A DNA stretch of 33,344 bases, taken from Dokdonia sp. GTDB taxonomy: Bacteria; Bacteroidota; Bacteroidia; Flavobacteriales; Flavobacteriaceae. Below, one piece after another: positions 22,272 to 29,026 of this stretch. The stretch covers positions 1 to 33,344 of the forward strand of contig JALZVV010000159.1 in NCBI GenBank assembly GCA_023299935.1. The letters run 5' to 3'. A program made the position numbers and the translations under genes. Within the stretch, counting starts at the first letter, position 1. Each line of letters starts with the position of its first letter. The notes below the pieces were generated by a model. That model was not told where the DNA came from, made no database searches, and saw nothing but the letters and a program-made list of their open reading frames with translations.

Positions 22272-23334
22272 TTTGCAATAGATATACCGCTAAAATAGCA
22301 AAGAGAATATTAGGTGTCCAAACTGCCACTAGTGGTGGAAAGTCTGATTGCTCTGCAAGCGTTCCAAATACTTTATCAAAAAAGATAAAAATAAAGGCAA
22401 GCATAATACCAAAAGCAAGATTAATTCCCATTCCGCCGCGGCGTTTCATAGCAGATACAGCAACAGCAATAATTGTAAGAATATAGGCTGCAACTGGCAA
22501 GCTGTATCGTTTTTGAAGTGTGACTTCATATCTACTTATATAGGACGAGCCTCTTGCCCTTTCTTTTGCAATAAATTTATTGAGTTCTGGGGTATTTAGA
22601 GTTTCTGCAATGTACTCTACAGGTGTCAAGTCATCTATATCAAAGGCAAAGGTGGTATCTATTTTTGTTTTACTTACTATAATATCATCGTCTACTCCTA
22701 CTATTCTTTTTTTGAAATTAAATAATGAATACGTCGTATCCTTTGCATTGAAAACAATTCTTGCCGCACTCATTTTATAGGTCAATTTATTATCTTCAAA
22801 ATGTTCCCAGGTAAAATTACGCCCAGTTTTAGAAACAGGACTAAAACTACTTACATAGATATAATCATTATCATTAATCTGCCTATATACTTCTTTTGTT
22901 TCTCTGTCCTTTTTATTTCTGCTCAGATATTCATATTTGAACTCATTGAATCCTTTACTTGCTCTAGGCGCAAGATATGTTCCTAAAATAAAGGCTCCCA
23001 CACAAACTACGGTTGCTCCTATCATATAGGGTCGTAAGAATCTCCAGAAAGAAACCCCACTACTTAAGAAAGCAATAACCTCTGTGTTATTTGCAAGTTT
23101 TGAAGTAAACCATATTACAGACAAAAACAAAAACAGGGGGAAAAGTAGATTTGCAAAGTAAATCGTAAAATTGAGATAATAGATAGCAATCTCTCCAAAA
23201 GGAACTTGGTTTGCTAGCATTTTATCAATCTTCTCTGCAAGGTTTACCGTAATCCCAATAGGGATAAAAAGCAAAAGCATAGTAACAAAAGTCCCTATGT
23301 AGCGCTTAACGATATACCAGTCTAAAATCTTCAC
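22258..23334 (-). CDS. LptF/LptG-family LPS export permease
   Basis: A 358-residue YjgP/YjgQ-family permease, part of the inner-membrane LptBFGC machine that extracts LPS from the membrane. TM helices are at about 12-35, 48-75 and 98-120, a periplasmic jellyroll-like domain spans about 130-260, and three TM helices cover about 270-355, the LptF/G layout. NTEVIAFLSSGVS and the N-terminal ILDWYIVKRYIGTF are family-typical. Whether it is LptF or LptG cannot be settled here. The start codon is GTG (23334), overlapping the tgt stop by one base (TAGTG), so translation is likely coupled to tgt. Confidence 0.85.
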   Translation of the reverse strand: MKILDWYIVKRYIGTFVTMLLLFIPIGITVNLAEKIDKMLANQVPFGEIAIYYLNFTIYFANLLFPLFLFLSVIWFTSKLANNTEVIAFLSSGVSFWRFLRPYMIGATVVCVGAFILGTYLAPRASKGFNEFKYEYLSRNKKDRETKEVYRQINDNDYIYVSSFSPVSKTGRNFTWEHFEDNKLTYKMSAARIVFNAKDTTYSLFNFKKRIVGVDDDIIVSKTKIDTTFAFDIDDLTPVEYIAETLNTPELNKFIAKERARGSSYISRYEVTLQKRYSLPVAAYILTIIAVAVSAMKRRGGMGINLAFGIMLAFIFIFFDKVFGTLAEQSDFPPLVAVWTPNILFAILAVYLLQNAKR

Positions 23335-24464
23335 TATAGTCGTTTATCCATTTGTTTGACCATCATATCCTTCCAAGTAATAAAGGTGCCAGCTAATATT
23401 TGCTTGCGCGCTTCTCGCACTAACCACATATAAAATCCAAGATTATGGATGGTAGCAATTTGCATCCCTAATAATTCGTGGCATTTAAAAAGGTGTTTCA
23501 AATAAGCTTTGCTATATTCTGTATCTACCCAAGTAATGCCCATTTCATCTATGGCAGAAAAATCTTCTTCCCACTTTTTATTCTTAATATTAATGGTACC
23601 ATGAGCCGTAAATAGCATCCCATTTCTTGCATTCCTGGTAGGCATCACACAATCAAACATATCAATACCAAGTGCAATATTCTCTAAAATATTGATAGGT
23701 GTCCCCACACCCATAAGATAGCGTGGCTTCTCTTTGGGAAGGATGGCTGTCACTACTTCTGTCATCGCATACAGCTCCTCTGCAGGCTCTCCTACAGATA
23801 GGCCGCCTATCGCATTCCCAAAGGAATTGGTATTGGCAATATACTCAGCAGATTGTGCTCTCAAATCTTTATACGTACTTCCTTGTACAATAGGAAAAAG
23901 TGTTTGCTCATAATCATATAAGGCGGGCGTTTTATCAAAATGCGCAATACATCTGTCTAACCAGCGATGCGTCATATGCATCGAGCGTTTAGCATATCTA
24001 TAATCGCAAGGATAAGGTGTGCACTCATCAAAAGCCATGATAATATCTGCACCTATTTGCCGCTGTATCTCCATTACATTTTCTGGCGTAAAAAGGTGCA
24101 TAGACCCATCTACATGGGATTTAAACTTTACTCCTTCTTCTTTAATCTTTCTTCGATTGGATAAGGAATAAACTTGATACCCTCCACTATCGGTTAGAAT
24201 AGGGCGTTTCCAGTTCATGAATTTATGTAGACCTCCTGCTTTTTGAAGGATTCCTGTACCTGGCCTTAAGTACAAATGATAGGTGTTTCCTAAAATGATA
24301 TCAGGATTAATATCTTCTCTCAACTCTCTTTGATGCACTCCTTTTACAGAGGCAACTGTCCCTACAGGCATAAATATAGGTGTCTCGATTATACCGTGAT
24401 CTGTAGTAAGTTTCCCTGCTCTCGCCTGAGAAGCATTGTCTGTGGTAAGAAGGTCAAATTGCAT
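23334..24464 (-). CDS. tgt: tRNA-guanine(34) transglycosylase (queuine tRNA-ribosyltransferase)
   Basis: Exchanges guanine-34 in GUN-anticodon tRNAs for preQ1 (queuosine pathway). ATG 24464 gives MQFDLLTTDN, the normal N-terminus; an upstream in-frame TTG is unlikely. Of 376 residues, D92 (TDSGGYQVYS) and nucleophile D271 (FDCVMPTRNARNG) are present, as are GGLSVGEP (220-227) and the TIHNL His, H340. The zinc site is altered: the bacterial CxCxxC before the H is replaced by G309-x-T311-x-x-D314 (GITWVDTEYSKAYLKHL), so all three zinc Cys are lost. I recall this as typical of Bacteroidota enzymes. The -7 promoter box lies 6 bp upstream of the ATG, suggesting a leaderless transcript. Confidence 0.94.
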   Translation of the reverse strand: MQFDLLTTDNASQARAGKLTTDHGIIETPIFMPVGTVASVKGVHQRELREDINPDIILGNTYHLYLRPGTGILQKAGGLHKFMNWKRPILTDSGGYQVYSLSNRRKIKEEGVKFKSHVDGSMHLFTPENVMEIQRQIGADIIMAFDECTPYPCDYRYAKRSMHMTHRWLDRCIAHFDKTPALYDYEQTLFPIVQGSTYKDLRAQSAEYIANTNSFGNAIGGLSVGEPAEELYAMTEVVTAILPKEKPRYLMGVGTPINILENIALGIDMFDCVMPTRNARNGMLFTAHGTINIKNKKWEEDFSAIDEMGITWVDTEYSKAYLKHLFKCHELLGMQIATIHNLGFYMWLVREARKQILAGTFITWKDMMVKQMDKRL

Positions 24465-24470
24465 AGAACG

Positions 24471-24478
24471 CAAATATA
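24471..24478 (-). promoter_or_regulatory. Putative -7 box of tgt, possible leaderless start
   Basis: Minus strand TATATTTG ends 6 bp before the tgt ATG. A -7 box here would put the transcript start at or within a few bases of the ATG. No -33 TTG at ideal spacing. Confidence 0.35.
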
Positions 24479-24522: not shown

Positions 24523-25755
24523 TTAAAACAAGCTAATAATATACCAAACACTAAATCCAACTAATGCAATAATACTTGAGATACTAACCCAATCTAAAGT
24601 TTTAGAAAGCCGTGCTTTTTCTGGAATTGATTTATCCTTAAAAACTAAGTAATTACAAATCGCATAAAAAGGTGCTGTTAGAAAAGACAAGATGGTAGCT
24701 ACTTTTATTAATACTCCCATCTCACTCACAAAAAACAAGAGAATGATACAAGTTCCCGCTATCAATATCCCTAACCAAAACAAATAGCTCGTCGCTTTTC
24801 CGGAAAATCCTAGGAGATTGGCAGCTTTAGACATAGCTCTGGGCGAAGCATCCAAAGTAGTCAAGGTGGTGCTAAACATCGTAGTTAAGGCAGCTATACC
24901 AATAAAAATAGCAGCCCAACTCCCTAAACTAGAAGTATACATTGTAATGAGCTGTCTCGCAAACACACCACCTACATTAGAAAAACTCTCTCCAGTGCCA
25001 AACATTACCAAAGCTCCGAGAATAGCAAAGGCTAAACCTAATATTACGGTACTTATATAACCAATATTAAAATCAAATAAGGCTGTACTTACAGATAGTT
25101 TTTCTGTAGATTTCTTTTCCAAAGTCCATAAAGAATGCCATATAGAAATATCCATAGGCGCTGGCATCCACCCCATAAAAGCAATCATAAAAGCAATACC
25201 GGTAGCGGTTTCAGGAATAACCTGATTGAACGACAACACCTGAGAACTAACGGAGACTATGTTTTCCTGAAAAGCAAAAAAAACGGCAATCAGAGTGCTT
25301 AAAGTGAGGGTGATAATTACGACCTTCATGAGTTTATCTAGCACTTTATAGCGACCAACAATTAATACAAAAGCACAAACCATAGTAATAACCACACTCC
25401 ATATCGCTGCATTTTCTGTAATCCCAAAAAGATGAACGGCCAAGCCAGCCGTAACTATCGTTACCGCTGTTTGTATGGTAAACATGGTGAGTAAGCTGAG
25501 AATAAAGTAAGTTACTAATATGGGCTTCCCAAGCTTGAGATAGCCATCAAGTAAACTCTTCCCCGTTACCGCTGCATATCGCGGACCAAATTGAAAAAAA
25601 GGATACTTAATCACATTAATGAGTACCAGTGCCCATAGTAATCCAAATCCATAATCTGCGCCGGCACGTGTAGATTGCACCAAATGCGACACGCCTATTG
25701 CCGCTCCCGCAAATAACAATCCTGGACCTAATTTCTTAATAGAAAGAGTATTCAT
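24523..25755 (-). CDS. Nramp-like transporter with altered metal-site motifs
   Basis: A 410-residue inner-membrane protein with about eleven TM helices, Nramp/LeuT fold by sequence pattern (LGPGLLFAGAA..., GFGLLWALVL). The Nramp metal site is not conserved: the TM1 DPGN is replaced by GVSH (21-24) and TM6 MPH by M197-P198-A199, so both the metal-binding Asp and Asn and the His are missing. The substrate may not be Mn/Fe. Members of this Bacteroidota subgroup are commonly named Nramp-family transporters without functional proof. Its ATG overlaps the sigma factor stop (ATGA, 4 bp), tying expression to the upstream sigma gene. No terminator follows before tgt. Confidence 0.8.
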   Translation of the reverse strand: MNTLSIKKLGPGLLFAGAAIGVSHLVQSTRAGADYGFGLLWALVLINVIKYPFFQFGPRYAAVTGKSLLDGYLKLGKPILVTYFILSLLTMFTIQTAVTIVTAGLAVHLFGITENAAIWSVVITMVCAFVLIVGRYKVLDKLMKVVIITLTLSTLIAVFFAFQENIVSVSSQVLSFNQVIPETATGIAFMIAFMGWMPAPMDISIWHSLWTLEKKSTEKLSVSTALFDFNIGYISTVILGLAFAILGALVMFGTGESFSNVGGVFARQLITMYTSSLGSWAAIFIGIAALTTMFSTTLTTLDASPRAMSKAANLLGFSGKATSYLFWLGILIAGTCIILLFFVSEMGVLIKVATILSFLTAPFYAICNYLVFKDKSIPEKARLSKTLDWVSISSIIALVGFSVWYIISLF

Positions 25756-26321
25756 TCTTTCCCGTTTTTAATGATATCTGCAAGAAGGCGTCTGGCTCTT
25801 AGTAGTTTTACTTTTACGCTACTCATAGGCTCATTAAGCTCTTCTTCCATTTCCTTATAGCTCATCTCCTGAAAATAACGCAGGTTTATCATTTCTTGAT
25901 AATGCGGCTTTAATTGTTTTATAAAACTCAGTAACTCAGCAAGATTTTGCTTTTTAATAAGTACATCTTCTGGTGTTGGACCTTCATCTGGTACACGATA
26001 TACTTGATCTTCATCTTTTTTTGTGATTTGAGATCGAATAGACGAAGCGCGTTTTCTTAAAATATCAATATGGATATTTTTAGAAATAGTAATTAGCCAA
26101 GTATTGAACCTAAAAGAGTCTTTATAGGTATCTAATTTATCAAAAGCTTTAGAGAAGGTTTGAATAGTTATCTCCTCTGCATCATACTCATCCTTAGTTC
26201 TTTTAAGTTGAAACTTATAGACTTCATTCCAGAAGGTATTGAGCAAAAAATTATAGGCGCTTTGACTGCCTTCTTTTGCTTTAGTAATTTCAGAACTTAT
26301 TTTGTCTTTTGTTATTTCCAA
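25752..26321 (-). CDS. Sigma-70-family (ECF-like) RNA polymerase sigma factor
   Basis: A 189-residue sigma factor of ECF layout. Sigma-2 spans about 18-85 (EEITIQTFSKAFDKLDTYK, FNTWLITISKNIHIDILRK), and sigma-4 is at about 125-180 (LKPHYQEMINLRYFQEMSYKEMEEELN, then SSVKVKLLRARRLL), with a short linker. The only in-frame start is TTG at 26321 (a stop codon lies upstream and there is no ATG for 140 codons). It overlaps the GT2 stop by 10 bp and the transporter start by 4 bp, so all three are probably translated together. No anti-sigma gene is next to it. Regulon unknown. Confidence 0.88.
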   Translation of the reverse strand: MEITKDKISSEITKAKEGSQSAYNFLLNTFWNEVYKFQLKRTKDEYDAEEITIQTFSKAFDKLDTYKDSFRFNTWLITISKNIHIDILRKRASSIRSQITKKDEDQVYRVPDEGPTPEDVLIKKQNLAELLSFIKQLKPHYQEMINLRYFQEMSYKEMEEELNEPMSSVKVKLLRARRLLADIIKNGKE

Positions 26322-27430
26322 CGACGCGGTTTTGCAATCAAGTTTGAGCTAAAGATACTTAATTGAAAAATGATAAGAAACAGTTCGTAAAAAGGATAGA
26401 GAAAGGCCACATCTTTCTCTTTGAGTTTAAAGGCAACTTTACCTACTATTATCCAGTTTATCAAATAACGTACTGCTAGTATCCATAGCACAATAGGCCA
26501 ATGCCATTGCAGGGATAGCAAAACCACAGCAAGCAGCACAAATAGTATCTGGCTTACATAAAACAGTCCCAACAGGAATTGATGCCCTTTTTTATAATGA
26601 TTAGCAATGTGTACGTGTCTTCTCTTCTGTATAATCCATTCAGAAAAAGTTCTTTTGGGTTCTGAAACCGTAAACGCATCTGGGTTAACACATAAAGCAG
26701 TATTTTTTGGGGTAGCGGCTGCATTTACAAATAAATCATCATCGCCACTCTGCACCTCCATATGATTCATAAAGCCGTTTTGCTCATAAAACAAGTCTGA
26801 AGAATAGGCCAAGTTGCGCCCTACACCCATATATGCATTTCCCCATTGCGCATAGCCAAAGTATTGCAGAGCGGTAAAAACGGTTTCATAGCGTATAAGA
26901 CTATTAAGTATAGAGCCTTTTACTTTTTTATAGGCACCATATCCCAAAACTATTTCCTTTTGATTATGAAAAGACAGCACCATATCTCTTAACCAAAAGG
27001 GAGAATTAGGAACACAATCTGCATCTGTAAAAACAAACAGCTTATGCGCTGCACGTTTGATTCCTAGGGTTAGGGCATACTTCTTACTTCCCCAGAAGGC
27101 TTCATTGTTTTCAACATTAACCACCGTAATGCGCTTATCTGCAGCGGCAAAGGTTTCGATAACTTCTTTAGTTTGGTCTATAGAGGCGTCATTAATCAAT
27201 ACGAGCTGATAGTCATCATATTGCTGCGCTAGCCATAATGGTATATTAGTACGAAGGTTTTCGGCTTCGTTTTTAGAACAGACTACAAGGGATACTGGAG
27301 GATTAGCTTTATGGGCTTTGGTAGGTTCCGCTTTCGCGAAAGCAAAACGAGAAAAAAACAAATAGTAAATAAGGTTACAGATTGTCACCCCAATAAATAT
27401 GTAGTAAAGGTATGGGAAGAGTATCTCCAA
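26312..27430 (-). CDS. GT2 glycosyltransferase, membrane-anchored
   Basis: A 372-residue family 2 glycosyltransferase. TM helix at about 8-27, then GT-A domain: VSLVVCSKNEAENL (46-59), LINDASIDQT, the D-x-D at D136/D138 (FTDADC), QSGDDDLF near 230 and QKRRHVH near 270 (the Q..RR motif, lacking the Trp of processive enzymes). Two or three C-terminal TM helices. Likely transfers a sugar to a lipid or envelope glycan on the cytoplasmic face; donor and acceptor unknown. The start codon is TTG, with an in-frame stop just upstream. Residues FAFAKA (29-34) are encoded by a copy of the GCTTTCGCGAAAGC palindrome. Next gene, the sigma factor, overlaps by 10 bp. Confidence 0.86.
   Translation of the reverse strand: MEILFPYLYYIFIGVTICNLIYYLFFSRFAFAKAEPTKAHKANPPVSLVVCSKNEAENLRTNIPLWLAQQYDDYQLVLINDASIDQTKEVIETFAAADKRITVVNVENNEAFWGSKKYALTLGIKRAAHKLFVFTDADCVPNSPFWLRDMVLSFHNQKEIVLGYGAYKKVKGSILNSLIRYETVFTALQYFGYAQWGNAYMGVGRNLAYSSDLFYEQNGFMNHMEVQSGDDDLFVNAAATPKNTALCVNPDAFTVSEPKRTFSEWIIQKRRHVHIANHYKKGHQFLLGLFYVSQILFVLLAVVLLSLQWHWPIVLWILAVRYLINWIIVGKVAFKLKEKDVAFLYPFYELFLIIFQLSIFSSNLIAKPRRWK
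27330..27343. repeat. GCTTTCGCGAAAGC palindrome, copy 6 (inside the GT2 gene)
   Basis: Perfect 14-bp core within the reading frame, read as A-F-A-K-A right after the first TM helix; a different frame from the copy in rimO. Confidence 0.9.
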
Positions 27431-27707: not shown

Positions 27708-28478
27708 TTATTGATCAAATTTTATATTTGCAACAATATTATCTACGCTAGCTTCTTTACTACCCCCTTTAGGTTCTATGGTAATATTTAAACTCGCCAT
27801 TTGCTCCTCAAAAGGAATTTCGACAAGCTTCTCTTTAGATACCTTTAATATGTTAAGAGGAACTAAATTTCCATCTACCTCTGCCCACATCTGATATACT
27901 TGCTCTTCTGATAATTCCGGCAAGGAAACAACGTTTACATAAGACTTCTTCTCCAATGAATTTACATAGGCAACAGTTTCTAGTTTACGGGCTCTTGTAT
28001 TGCCTCTCAAGACATATTTTTCTGTAGAAGCATTATTTAAAATCATAAACTGCTCTTCTACAGATTGAAGTGACACTTTGTTAGAAACAATATCATCATT
28101 GAGCTGTTCAATAAGCGAAGTGGTAAGTCGTCTATCCTTAAGCAACTCTTGATTTTGCTTAAAAATCATAAAGGTCATTATACCAAAAAAAGCTGCCGCT
28201 ACACAAGCTGTGATTGCCAGAATAGGCAATGGCTTAGGCTTTAAAGATTTAGAGCCTAGTTGGTTTAAAATATCTTTCTTTAAACCTTCTGGGGCTTTTA
28301 CAGCAAAACTGCTGGCATACTCCTCAAGGTTTTCTTGTAATTCACTATAGGTCTCGTTTACCTCAGGATATTTATGGATGTAGTGCTCTACCTCTTGCGA
28401 CTCCATAGGAGAAGTGGACCCCATAAGGTAACGTTCTAGCAAATCGCTTTCTAAAAATAGCTTTACTCTTTCACTCAT
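27708..28478 (-). CDS. Anti-sigma factor (RskA-like)
   Basis: A 256-residue inner-membrane anti-sigma factor: cytoplasmic N-terminal helix bundle (about 1-80, LFLESDLLERYLMGSTSP as in RskA-type sensors), one TM helix (85-106) and a periplasmic RskA C-terminal domain (about 110-256, with YVNSLEKKSYVNVVSLPELS and EQVYQMWAEV). It presumably sequesters the upstream sigma factor; their genes overlap by 4 bp (ATGA), the usual pairing of sigma and anti-sigma. The signal that releases the sigma factor cannot be inferred. Confidence 0.87.
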   Translation of the reverse strand: MSERVKLFLESDLLERYLMGSTSPMESQEVEHYIHKYPEVNETYSELQENLEEYASSFAVKAPEGLKKDILNQLGSKSLKPKPLPILAITACVAAAFFGIMTFMIFKQNQELLKDRRLTTSLIEQLNDDIVSNKVSLQSVEEQFMILNNASTEKYVLRGNTRARKLETVAYVNSLEKKSYVNVVSLPELSEEQVYQMWAEVDGNLVPLNILKVSKEKLVEIPFEEQMASLNITIEPKGGSKEASVDNIVANIKFDQ

Positions 28479-29026
28479 ATATTTAATACTACAATCAAAA
28501 TTCCAAAAAGTTTGCGCAACTCTCTTAATCCGATTTTTAATCGTGATTTTACTGTTCCTAATGGAATATTGAGTTCGTCGCTTGCTTCTTGCTGCGTCAT
28601 CCCTTGAAAGAATAACGCATCTATTACCACTTTATACTTTTCTTCTAGACCACTAGTATGTTTTTTTAGGTCAATATGATCTATCACCAACTCGGTAGTG
28701 GGTATATGATATACGTTAGATTCATTAGTCTGGATTTCTTTTGCTTGTTTTCTTTTTCTGCTGCGTACGGCATCTATGGCTGTATTTTGAACTACCCGAA
28801 ACAACCAAGTAAATAATCGTGCTTTAGAGGCATCATATTGGTTTGCTTTTTTCCAAATCTTAACAAAAGCATTTTGCAATACATCTCGAGCGAGTGCCTC
28901 ATCCTTAGTTACCTTAATAGCAACCCCAAACAAAGCATCGCCATAGTGGTCATACAGCAAACTTATGGCACGCTCATCTTGTGCGGCAAGCAACTCTACA
29001 ATATGTTTTTCTATAAAAGGTTTCAA
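28475..29026 (-). CDS. ECF sigma factor, SigK-like
   Basis: A 183-residue sigma-70 family protein. Sigma-2 is at about 20-95 (ALARDVLQNAFVKIWKKA, LFTWLFRVVQNTAIDAVRSRK), sigma-4 at about 125-175 (LEEKYKVVIDALFFQGMTQQEASDELNIPLGTVKSRLKIGLREL). The start is a TTG at 29026; the in-frame upstream sequence has no ATG before leaving the sigma homology. The C-terminus ends in a hydrophobic stretch ILIVVLNI. Partner anti-sigma gene overlaps its stop. No promoter box with both elements is visible in the 148-bp spacer to murB. Confidence 0.88.
   Translation of the reverse strand: MKPFIEKHIVELLAAQDERAISLLYDHYGDALFGVAIKVTKDEALARDVLQNAFVKIWKKANQYDASKARLFTWLFRVVQNTAIDAVRSRKRKQAKEIQTNESNVYHIPTTELVIDHIDLKKHTSGLEEKYKVVIDALFFQGMTQQEASDELNIPLGTVKSRLKIGLRELRKLFGILIVVLNI

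What the first reader, a model, noticed from the sequence alone, without database searches (positions are those of the whole stretch)
24523..25755. Nramp-family protein lacking the metal-binding DPGN and MPH motifs
TM1 has GVSH instead of DPGN, and TM6 has MPA instead of MPH, so the residues that bind Mn/Fe in Nramp are absent. Its genes are coupled to a sigma factor. A different substrate, or a sensor-like role, is possible.
Basis: partly seen in the sequence, partly recalled or inferred. Interest (0 to 1): 0.5.

Follow-up and report, generated by a model that had tools for sequence, protein, structure and literature searches.

The report
Nramp-like transporter without metal site
A marine flavobacterium carries a well-conserved relative of the manganese and iron importer Nramp that lacks the known metal-binding and proton-pathway residues; it belongs to a little-studied branch of the family that may move organic acids rather than metals, and it merely shares an operon with a sigma factor.

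Summary
The 410-aa ORF 24523-25755(-) is real, conserved, and modelled as a LeuT/Nramp fold. TM1 GVSH occupies the DPGN columns. All 112 BLAST-selected rows share GVSH and D202. A 68-row tree splits PF01566 in two (100/98): canonical Nramp, NRMT, GPGT and GPGF (pxp-linked) on one side; GxSH, GSGE and GxGD on the other. GxSH with NRMT is rejected (p-AU 2.7e-6). MntR-like genes lie near 7 of 20 canonical loci and 0 of 103 GxSH loci. Eight of 22 sister GSGE loci have a co-directional carbohydrate, acid or ester gene beside them. Sigma precedes the transporter in 80 of 80 flavobacterial loci, but persists in 11 genomes without it, one holding a deletion remnant: against a dedicated sensor. Best reading: a carrier of a small organic acid or zwitterion, not Mn/Fe; substrate unproven. 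Nramp-related groups lacking DPGN/MPH are already published as mostly uncharacterised: a variant of a known kind.

The parts
24523..25755 (-). Nramp-related transporter (GxSH clade), 410 aa
   Evidence: ORF; PF01566 51.4 bits; AF2 model pLDDT 81.1, pTM 0.83; best PDB match DraNramp 6d91, Z 39.6, rmsd 3.2 over 378 residues; dN/dS 0.02-0.21 in the 14 homologue pairs listed (the window's own copy is in none of them)
25684..25695 (-). TM1 GVSH, residues 21-24, in the DPGN columns
   Evidence: GVSH in 112 of 112 BLAST-selected rows
25150..25173 (-). TM6 G195-W-M-P-A-P-M-D202; canonical M-P-H aligns with A199-P200-M201
   Evidence: six of six methods; different registers; non-helical break 197-202 in the model
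25159..25167 (-).
25752..26321 (-). ECF sigma factor directly upstream, stop codon overlapping the transporter start (ATGA)
   Evidence: upstream in 80 of 80 loci but present without the transporter in other genomes
26312..27430 (-). family 2 glycosyltransferase upstream of sigma; part of the conserved gene order
   Evidence: PF00535; upstream within 1.2 kb in 65 of 80 loci
23334..24473 (-). tgt-like ORF downstream, where other Flavobacteriaceae mostly have lipA (not part of the transporter; both names recalled from sequence, no family search made)
   Evidence: same strand further downstream in the held stretch: tgt-like in 10 of 80 loci, lipA-like in 61, neither in 9

Best explanation
The gene encodes a functional LeuT-fold secondary transporter of an uncharacterised Nramp-related clade (named GxSH here), in a half of PF01566 that is separate from canonical Nramp and from the magnesium transporters. 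It cannot use the Nramp metal site: Asp56 becomes Gly, Asn59 becomes His, Met230 becomes Ala, His232 becomes Met or Leu, and the TM3 acids become Ala or Val and Ile or Gln. Most likely it moves a small organic anion or zwitterion. The substrate would be held by the opened TM1 (Gly-x-Ser, as in amino-acid carriers of the same superfamily) and by TM6 around the conserved H24 and D/E202, with alternating access by the rocking-bundle mechanism. It is an accessory gene, lost in places, that shares a gene cluster with an ECF sigma gene without being that sigma's dedicated partner. Shown by computation: predicted fold, conservation, lost residues, tree position, gene order, sigma independence. Inferred: organic substrate, coupling ion, roles of H24 and D202.
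For: Lost Nramp residues. Conserved own site: GVSH and D202 in 112 of 112 BLAST-selected rows; D or E at 202 in 140 of 140 distinct GxSH sequences (that set was chosen by the TM1 motif, so its TM1 counts are circular). dN/dS 0.02-0.21 in 14 pairs. Fold: DraNramp Z 39.6, Arg-bound AdiC Z 32.8. Tree: GxSH one clade (100/100), grouped with GSGE, GxGD and GASH and apart from DPGN, NRMT, GPGT and GPGF (100/98; repeated without long branches). No MntR-like or Fur-like gene in 103 GxSH loci, against MntR-like in 7 of 20 canonical loci. Of 22 GSGE loci viewed, 8 have a co-directional neighbour of sugar, acid or ester metabolism: L175 and L259 (aldolase/citrate lyase and phosphoglycerate dehydrogenase; L259 also has a four-carbon acid sugar kinase further off on the other strand), L181 (UxaA), L258 (GH43), L284 (acetyl xylan esterase), L286 (alpha-L-fucosidase), L287 (tannase), L298 (GFO/IDH/MocA). 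Precedent in PF01566: PxpT is needed for growth on 5-oxoproline (PMC13274462, passages).
Against: No GxSH gene itself was seen in a catabolic operon. Its neighbours are sigma, a nitronate monooxygenase cluster in 4 loci, HlyIII, DUF218 or housekeeping genes. One GSGE locus lies beside catechol-siderophore genes (L179). Of the 16 GSGE genome loci only 4 (5 neighbour proteins, picked by eye) were Pfam-tested, and neighbours of canonical loci were not tested for carbohydrate genes, so that count has no control. The PxpT relative YcsG is claimed as a Mn importer (PMC10448178, passages). H24 plus D202 could still bind a metal. The pxp-linked GPGF proteins lie in the other half of the tree, so that precedent is not a close relative. 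One alignment keeps Met in the site.
Confidence: 0.5

Rival explanations
1. It transports a different metal ion (for example Zn, Ni, Cu or hydrated Mg), using H24 and D/E202, possibly with backbone carbonyls, in place of Asp, Asn and Met.
For: H24 and D/E202 are conserved and both are metal-capable; the fold is closest to metal-transporting Nramps; NRMT shows that site changes within the family can go with Mg transport (PMC8806188, passages); the NCBIfam model that fits calls it a divalent metal transporter.
Against: Grouping with NRMT is rejected, p-AU 2.7e-6. The TM1 Asp is gone. No MntR-like or Fur-like gene in 103 loci, and no Rfam match in 13 loci or the window at gathering thresholds. 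Part of the sister GSGE group sits beside carbohydrate genes.
Confidence: 0.3
2. It is a sensor or membrane partner that controls the adjacent ECF sigma factor.
For: Sigma directly upstream in 80 of 80 loci, from a one-base overlap to a gap of 216 bases by BLAST ends; in the window the sigma's two adjacent genes are a glycosyltransferase and this transporter, so no other membrane partner is next to it.
Against: The sigma is retained at 56-64% identity in 11 genomes where no homologue of this protein was found; one (G022) keeps only a 72-codon remnant between sigma and lipA; in G110 the sigma and a 46%-identical homologue lie about 22 kb apart; 20 more distant GxSH loci have no such sigma beside them.
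Confidence: 0.08
3. It is a Mn/Fe importer with an unusual site.
For: Family annotation; YcsG, placed in a G-motif group by PMC12873925 (legend), is reported as a Mn importer (PMC10448178, passages).
Against: Asp56, Asn59, Met230, His232, E134 and D131 are all replaced; Asp56 is strictly required in DraNramp (PMC13060092, passages); no MntR-like gene near 103 GxSH loci against 7 of 20 canonical loci.
Confidence: 0.07

Closest known systems
Nramp-related proteins, G-motif groups (Ray, Berry and Gaudet preprint, PMC12873925)
   Same: PF01566, LeuT fold, no DPGN or MPH, no TM3 proton residues; the legend calls the groups other than NRMT-like and G-motif 3 entirely uncharacterized
   Different: The GxSH signature, the W-M-P-x-x-x-[DE] TM6 and the sigma synteny are not named in the passages read; the figure that would show whether this clade is one of theirs is not held
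EleNRMT, Nramp-related magnesium transporter (PDB 7qia)
   Same: Fold (Z 34.0); Met of TM6 replaced by Ala
   Different: Keeps TM1 Asp (DxxG) and Thr on TM6; the tree puts it beside canonical Nramp, and holding it with GxSH is rejected
PxpT / YcsG (MntG), 5-oxoproline or Mn transporter
   Same: PF01566; the 9a52 YcsG model resembles this model (Z 33.7); the pxp-linked protein read here (L254) has Gly in place of the TM1 Asp
   Different: L254 (GPGF) lies in the other half of the tree; the YcsG and PxpT sequences themselves were not available
Canonical Nramp/MntH (DraNramp, E. coli MntH)
   Same: Closest solved fold
   Different: The metal-site and proton-pathway residues tested all differ; separate clade
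GSGE and GxGD Nramp-related groups, annotated Nramp family divalent metal transporter
   Same: Same half of the tree; NCBIfam model NF037982 also fits the one GSGE and two GxGD members scanned
   Different: TM1 ends in Glu or Asp instead of His; catabolic gene neighbours seen for some, none for GxSH

Membership tests
PF01566 superfamily (Nramp and Nramp-related) | profile match above the curated cut-off | tested here: met
   51.4 bits against 29.8
PF01566 superfamily (Nramp and Nramp-related) | LeuT fold as in solved Nramps | tested here: met
   predicted model: DraNramp 6d91 Z 39.6, rmsd 3.2, 378 aligned; pLDDT 81.1
Canonical Nramp / Slc11 | DxxN in TM1 | tested here: not met
   GVSH in those columns
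Canonical Nramp / Slc11 | A/CxxM and His in TM6 (MPH) | tested here: not met
   Met aligns with A199 and His with M201 in six of six methods; one search gives P200 and D202; the narrow-profile keeps the Met but not the His
Canonical Nramp / Slc11 | TM3 acidic proton-pathway residues (E134, D131) | tested here: not met
   A97 and I94 or V98 and Q95
Canonical Nramp / Slc11 | falls in the DPGN clade | tested here: not met
   separate, GxSH 100/100 and DPGN 100/100; the AU test holding GxSH with DPGN was not finished
Canonical Nramp / Slc11 | Mn/Fe transport | not testable with these tools
   needs an assay
NRMT magnesium transporters | DxxG in TM1 | tested here: not met
   GxxH
NRMT magnesium transporters | TxxA/T in TM6 | tested here: not met
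   WxxA; Ala shared, Trp in place of Thr
NRMT magnesium transporters | common clade | tested here: not met
   p-AU 2.7e-6 against it
NRMT magnesium transporters | magnesium (M-box) riboswitch, present upstream of some members only | tested here: not met
   no Rfam match at gathering thresholds in the window or in 13 GxSH loci
Nramp-related G-motif groups (PMC12873925) | Gly in place of TM1 Asp, no MPH, no TM3 proton residues | tested here: met
   the meaning of 'G-motif' is my reading, as the figure was not seen
Nramp-related G-motif groups (PMC12873925) | membership of one named group of that tree | tested here: inconclusive
   figure and sequence list not held; only legend and passages read
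Sigma-factor sensor partner | obligate co-occurrence with the sigma gene | tested here: not met
   sigma without the transporter in 11 genomes at 56-64% identity
EIN2-like proteins | Nramp domain with a C-terminal signalling domain (recalled) | tested here: not met
   410 aa with no further Pfam domain; no EIN2 sequence was put in the tree

The most novel reading that the evidence does not exclude
The half of PF01566 that holds GxSH, GSGE and GxGD, whose members NCBIfam names 'Nramp family divalent metal transporter', is in truth a family of organic-acid (including sugar-acid) carriers. The Nramp metal site then arose from, or beside, an organic-substrate carrier by gaining an Asp at the TM1 Gly, and the flavobacterial GVSH protein is one of these organic carriers.
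Probability: 0.35. Interest if true: 0.7.

Novelty: new variant of a known kind. Interest (0 to 1): 0.45.

Why it matters
Genome annotation calls these proteins divalent metal transporters, and metal budgets of bacteria are inferred from such calls. If this half of the family carries organic acids, many annotations would be wrong, and the origin of the Nramp metal site becomes testable by comparing sister clades that differ at the TM1 Asp/Gly position.

Tried and rejected
Sensor of the sigma factor: tested by asking whether sigma occurs without the transporter; it does. Magnesium transporter: tested by motif, tree and AU test; rejected as membership, not as function. Riboswitch clue to the substrate: no Rfam match. 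Substrate from gene neighbours of GxSH itself: no common catabolic gene; of 20 more distant loci, a nitronate monooxygenase cluster lies next to it in 4, HlyIII in 5, a DUF218 protein in 4 (Pfam names from one member each). hhalign with narrow profiles put gaps inside TM1 and aligned MPA with MPH; it was set aside, and hhalign with broad profiles (E 2.9e-41) later gave a gapless TM1 and the A199-P200-M201 register. The solved-structure search with the pxp-linked protein found nothing at E 0.001, so the YcsG sequence could not be brought in. Paper searches: listings for Nramp with sigma factor and Flavobacteria, Dokdonia, NRMT/SLC11, MntG/YcsG, 5-oxoproline, outgroup wording, G-motif wording, YcsG-FabL and acid sugars showed no title or abstract about a GxSH clade. 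Eight papers were opened, in passages only (PMC12873925, PMC10448178, PMC13060092, PMC10606218, PMC13274462, PMC4072509, PMC8806188, PMC9606685). Results against my reading: L179 beside siderophore genes; GSGE loci such as L293 and L297 without any visible catabolic neighbour; no control for the carbohydrate neighbours; the MntR and Fur queries came from the canonical loci, so that control leans towards them.

Full report
What is there. The finding lies on the minus strand of a contig from a flavobacterial assembly (2.62 Mb, 85% complete) whose nearest named relatives are mostly Dokdonia. The ORF of 410 aa matches PF01566 with 51.4 bits and the NCBIfam model NF037982, called a divalent metal transporter, with 54 bits against a cut-off of 50.

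The site. Against human DMT1 the alignment is gapless through TM1 and puts G21-V22-S23-H24 in the DPGN columns. The same comes, from four MAFFT modes and a broad-profile hhalign, and from the first aligned residues of the structural match to DraNramp, if no gap lies between. In one search four MAFFT modes, an HMM built from the other half of the family and hhalign with broad profiles all align M-P-H with A199-P200-M201, anchored by the conserved G195. Three earlier alignments differ: one search gives P200-M201-D202, opens a six-residue gap, and the narrow-profile hhalign does align MPA with MPH but breaks TM1. I take the register, in which the soft Met ligand is gone. TM3 E134 and D131 fall on A97 and I94 or V98 and Q95; none is acidic. 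The published signatures are DxxN-A/CxxM for Nramp and DxxG-TxxA/T for NRMT (PMC8806188, passages); here it is GxxH-WxxA.

Is it a real, selected protein? Among 112 rows chosen by BLAST, some genes twice, all have GVSH and all have Asp at 202. In 140 distinct GxSH sequences residue 202 is Asp (131) or Glu (9), and G195, W196, P198, K50, K144 and D302 never vary (the set was chosen by the TM1 motif, so its TM1 counts are circular). dN/dS lies between 0.02 and 0.21 in the 14 closest pairs listed, none of which includes the window's copy. The AlphaFold2 model, from an alignment of 44 sequences, has mean pLDDT 81.1 and pTM 0.83 with a break in TM6 at 197-202. Its best solved matches are DraNramp structures (Z 39.6, rmsd 3.2, 378 residues); EleNRMT scores 34.0, a YcsG model 33.7 and the arginine carrier AdiC 32.8.

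Where it belongs. A tree of 68 proteins divides PF01566 into two halves with support 100/98: DPGN, NRMT, GPGT, GPGF and GTGS on one side; GxSH, GASH, GSGE and GxGD on the other. GxSH is one clade with 100/100. A second tree without long branches agrees, and holding GxSH with NRMT costs 102.6 log-likelihood units, p-AU 2.7e-6. The names of the groups are mine, after their TM1 letters. A 2026 preprint (PMC12873925; abstract, passages and a figure legend read) describes a paraphyletic set of Nramp-related proteins without DPGN and MPH, with an NRMT-like group, a G-motif 3 group that holds B. subtilis MntG, and other groups that it calls entirely uncharacterized. The present clade very likely falls in that set; which group could not be checked. 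An earlier review (PMC9606685, passages) speaks of three clades in PF01566.

Distribution. The protein was found in 48 of 247 genomes sampled from the phylum at E 1e-15 and in 36 of 59 close relatives at E 1e-10, and at 32-36% identity in Neisseria, Photobacterium and Pseudoalteromonas records.

The sigma factor. In the 80 best of 141 homologous loci the sigma gene lies directly upstream in all, 65 also with the glycosyltransferase; a lipA-like gene follows further downstream in 61, the tgt-like gene in 10, neither in 9. The sigma orthologue was also sought in 31 genomes and found in 30 at E 1e-25. In 11 of these (G019, G020, G022, G024, G030, G031, G078, G114, G141, G226, G253) it has 56-64% identity although searches found no homologue of the transporter; G020 is only 80% complete. 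In G033, also without the transporter, the best sigma match has only 40% identity and may not be the orthologue. In G022 a 72-codon remnant, the first residues joined to the C-terminal part, lies between sigma and lipA. In G110 the sigma and a 46%-identical transporter are about 22 kb apart on one contig. I infer that the older order is glycosyltransferase - sigma - transporter - lipA, with loss of the transporter in places and retention of sigma. The 20 more distant GxSH loci from genomes have no such sigma beside them.

Substrate. Direct evidence is lacking. Three indirect lines point away from Mn and Fe. First, the residues. Second, regulators: MntR-like genes were found in 7 of 20 canonical loci of similar length but in 0 of 103 GxSH, 0 of 22 GSGE and 0 of 9 GxGD loci. 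The queries came from canonical loci of the same phylum, two of the 20 canonical loci gave no transporter ORF, and the loci are not independent of each other. GPGT loci, on the canonical side of the tree, also had 0 of 10, though these stretches are shorter. Third, neighbours of the sister groups. For GSGE, eight of 22 loci viewed have a co-directional neighbour of carbohydrate, sugar-acid or ester metabolism: L175 and L259 with aldolase/citrate lyase and a dehydrogenase (L259 also with a four-carbon acid sugar kinase on the other strand), L181 with UxaA, L258 with GH43, L284 with acetyl xylan esterase, L286 with alpha-L-fucosidase, L287 with tannase and L298 with GFO/IDH/MocA. The four genome loci of these eight were picked by eye for the Pfam scan, and canonical loci were not scanned likewise. 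Among nine GxGD loci, L147 follows CoA-transferase and thiolase genes and L171 overlaps an amidase gene. Not all fit: L179 follows catechol-siderophore genes, and several GSGE loci have no such neighbour. Elsewhere in the family a GPGF protein lies beside pxpA on a Lactiplantibacillus plasmid, in line with the report that PxpT is needed for growth on 5-oxoproline (PMC13274462, passages), while its relative YcsG is reported as a Mn importer (PMC10448178, passages).

Mechanism. The most economical model is a LeuT-fold carrier whose opened TM1 (Gly-x-Ser) binds a carboxylate as the Gly-Ser-Gly of amino-acid carriers does (recalled, not tested), with H24 and D/E202 completing the site. A metal site made of H24 and D202 is the main rival. 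The coupling ion is unknown.

Novelty. The absence of DPGN and MPH in distant Nramp relatives is published. What I did not find in print, by the searches (listings; eight papers opened in passages), is this GxSH clade, its synteny with the ECF sigma, and the carbohydrate context of the GSGE sister group.

Noticed in passing
G000:C108:4102-5154 (locus L001): The second PF01566 protein of the same genome is also non-canonical (TM1 GPGT, TM6 TTVVPYN), so no DPGN protein was found in this 85%-complete assembly. Of 8 other same-family genomes, 4 have one strong match (all four DPGN), 3 have a lower-scoring match beside GxSH (one read: GPGT), 1 has none.
   Followed up: partly
L175, L181, L258, L259, L284, L286, L287, L298: Proteins of the GSGE type, named Nramp family divalent metal transporter in the annotated records, lie beside sugar-acid, GH43, acetyl xylan esterase, fucosidase, tannase or GFO/IDH/MocA genes.
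   Followed up: partly
L254:4766-5965: An NRAMP-named protein with TM1 GPGF lies directly after pxpA in an oxoprolinase-type gene cluster on a Lactiplantibacillus plantarum plasmid.
   Followed up: partly
L173:2998-6210: A haloarchaeal GPGT-type Nramp relative is followed at once by hydantoinase/oxoprolinase genes.
   Followed up: no
L183:2957-3175: Remnant of the transporter gene between sigma and lipA, left by a large internal deletion.
   Followed up: yes
L150, L151, L152, L154: In four loci from other Flavobacteriales families a gene of one cluster (nitronate monooxygenase, PF03060, tested in L154) lies immediately upstream of the GxSH transporter.
   Followed up: partly
27708-29026: A second sigma-like ORF with an overlapping ORF, probably its anti-sigma factor by look, lies further upstream on the same strand; no family search was made.
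   Followed up: no
NZ_CP119140.1 (L143): This record of 2.17 Mb is filed as a Neisseria gonorrhoeae plasmid but by its size looks like a chromosome.
   Followed up: no
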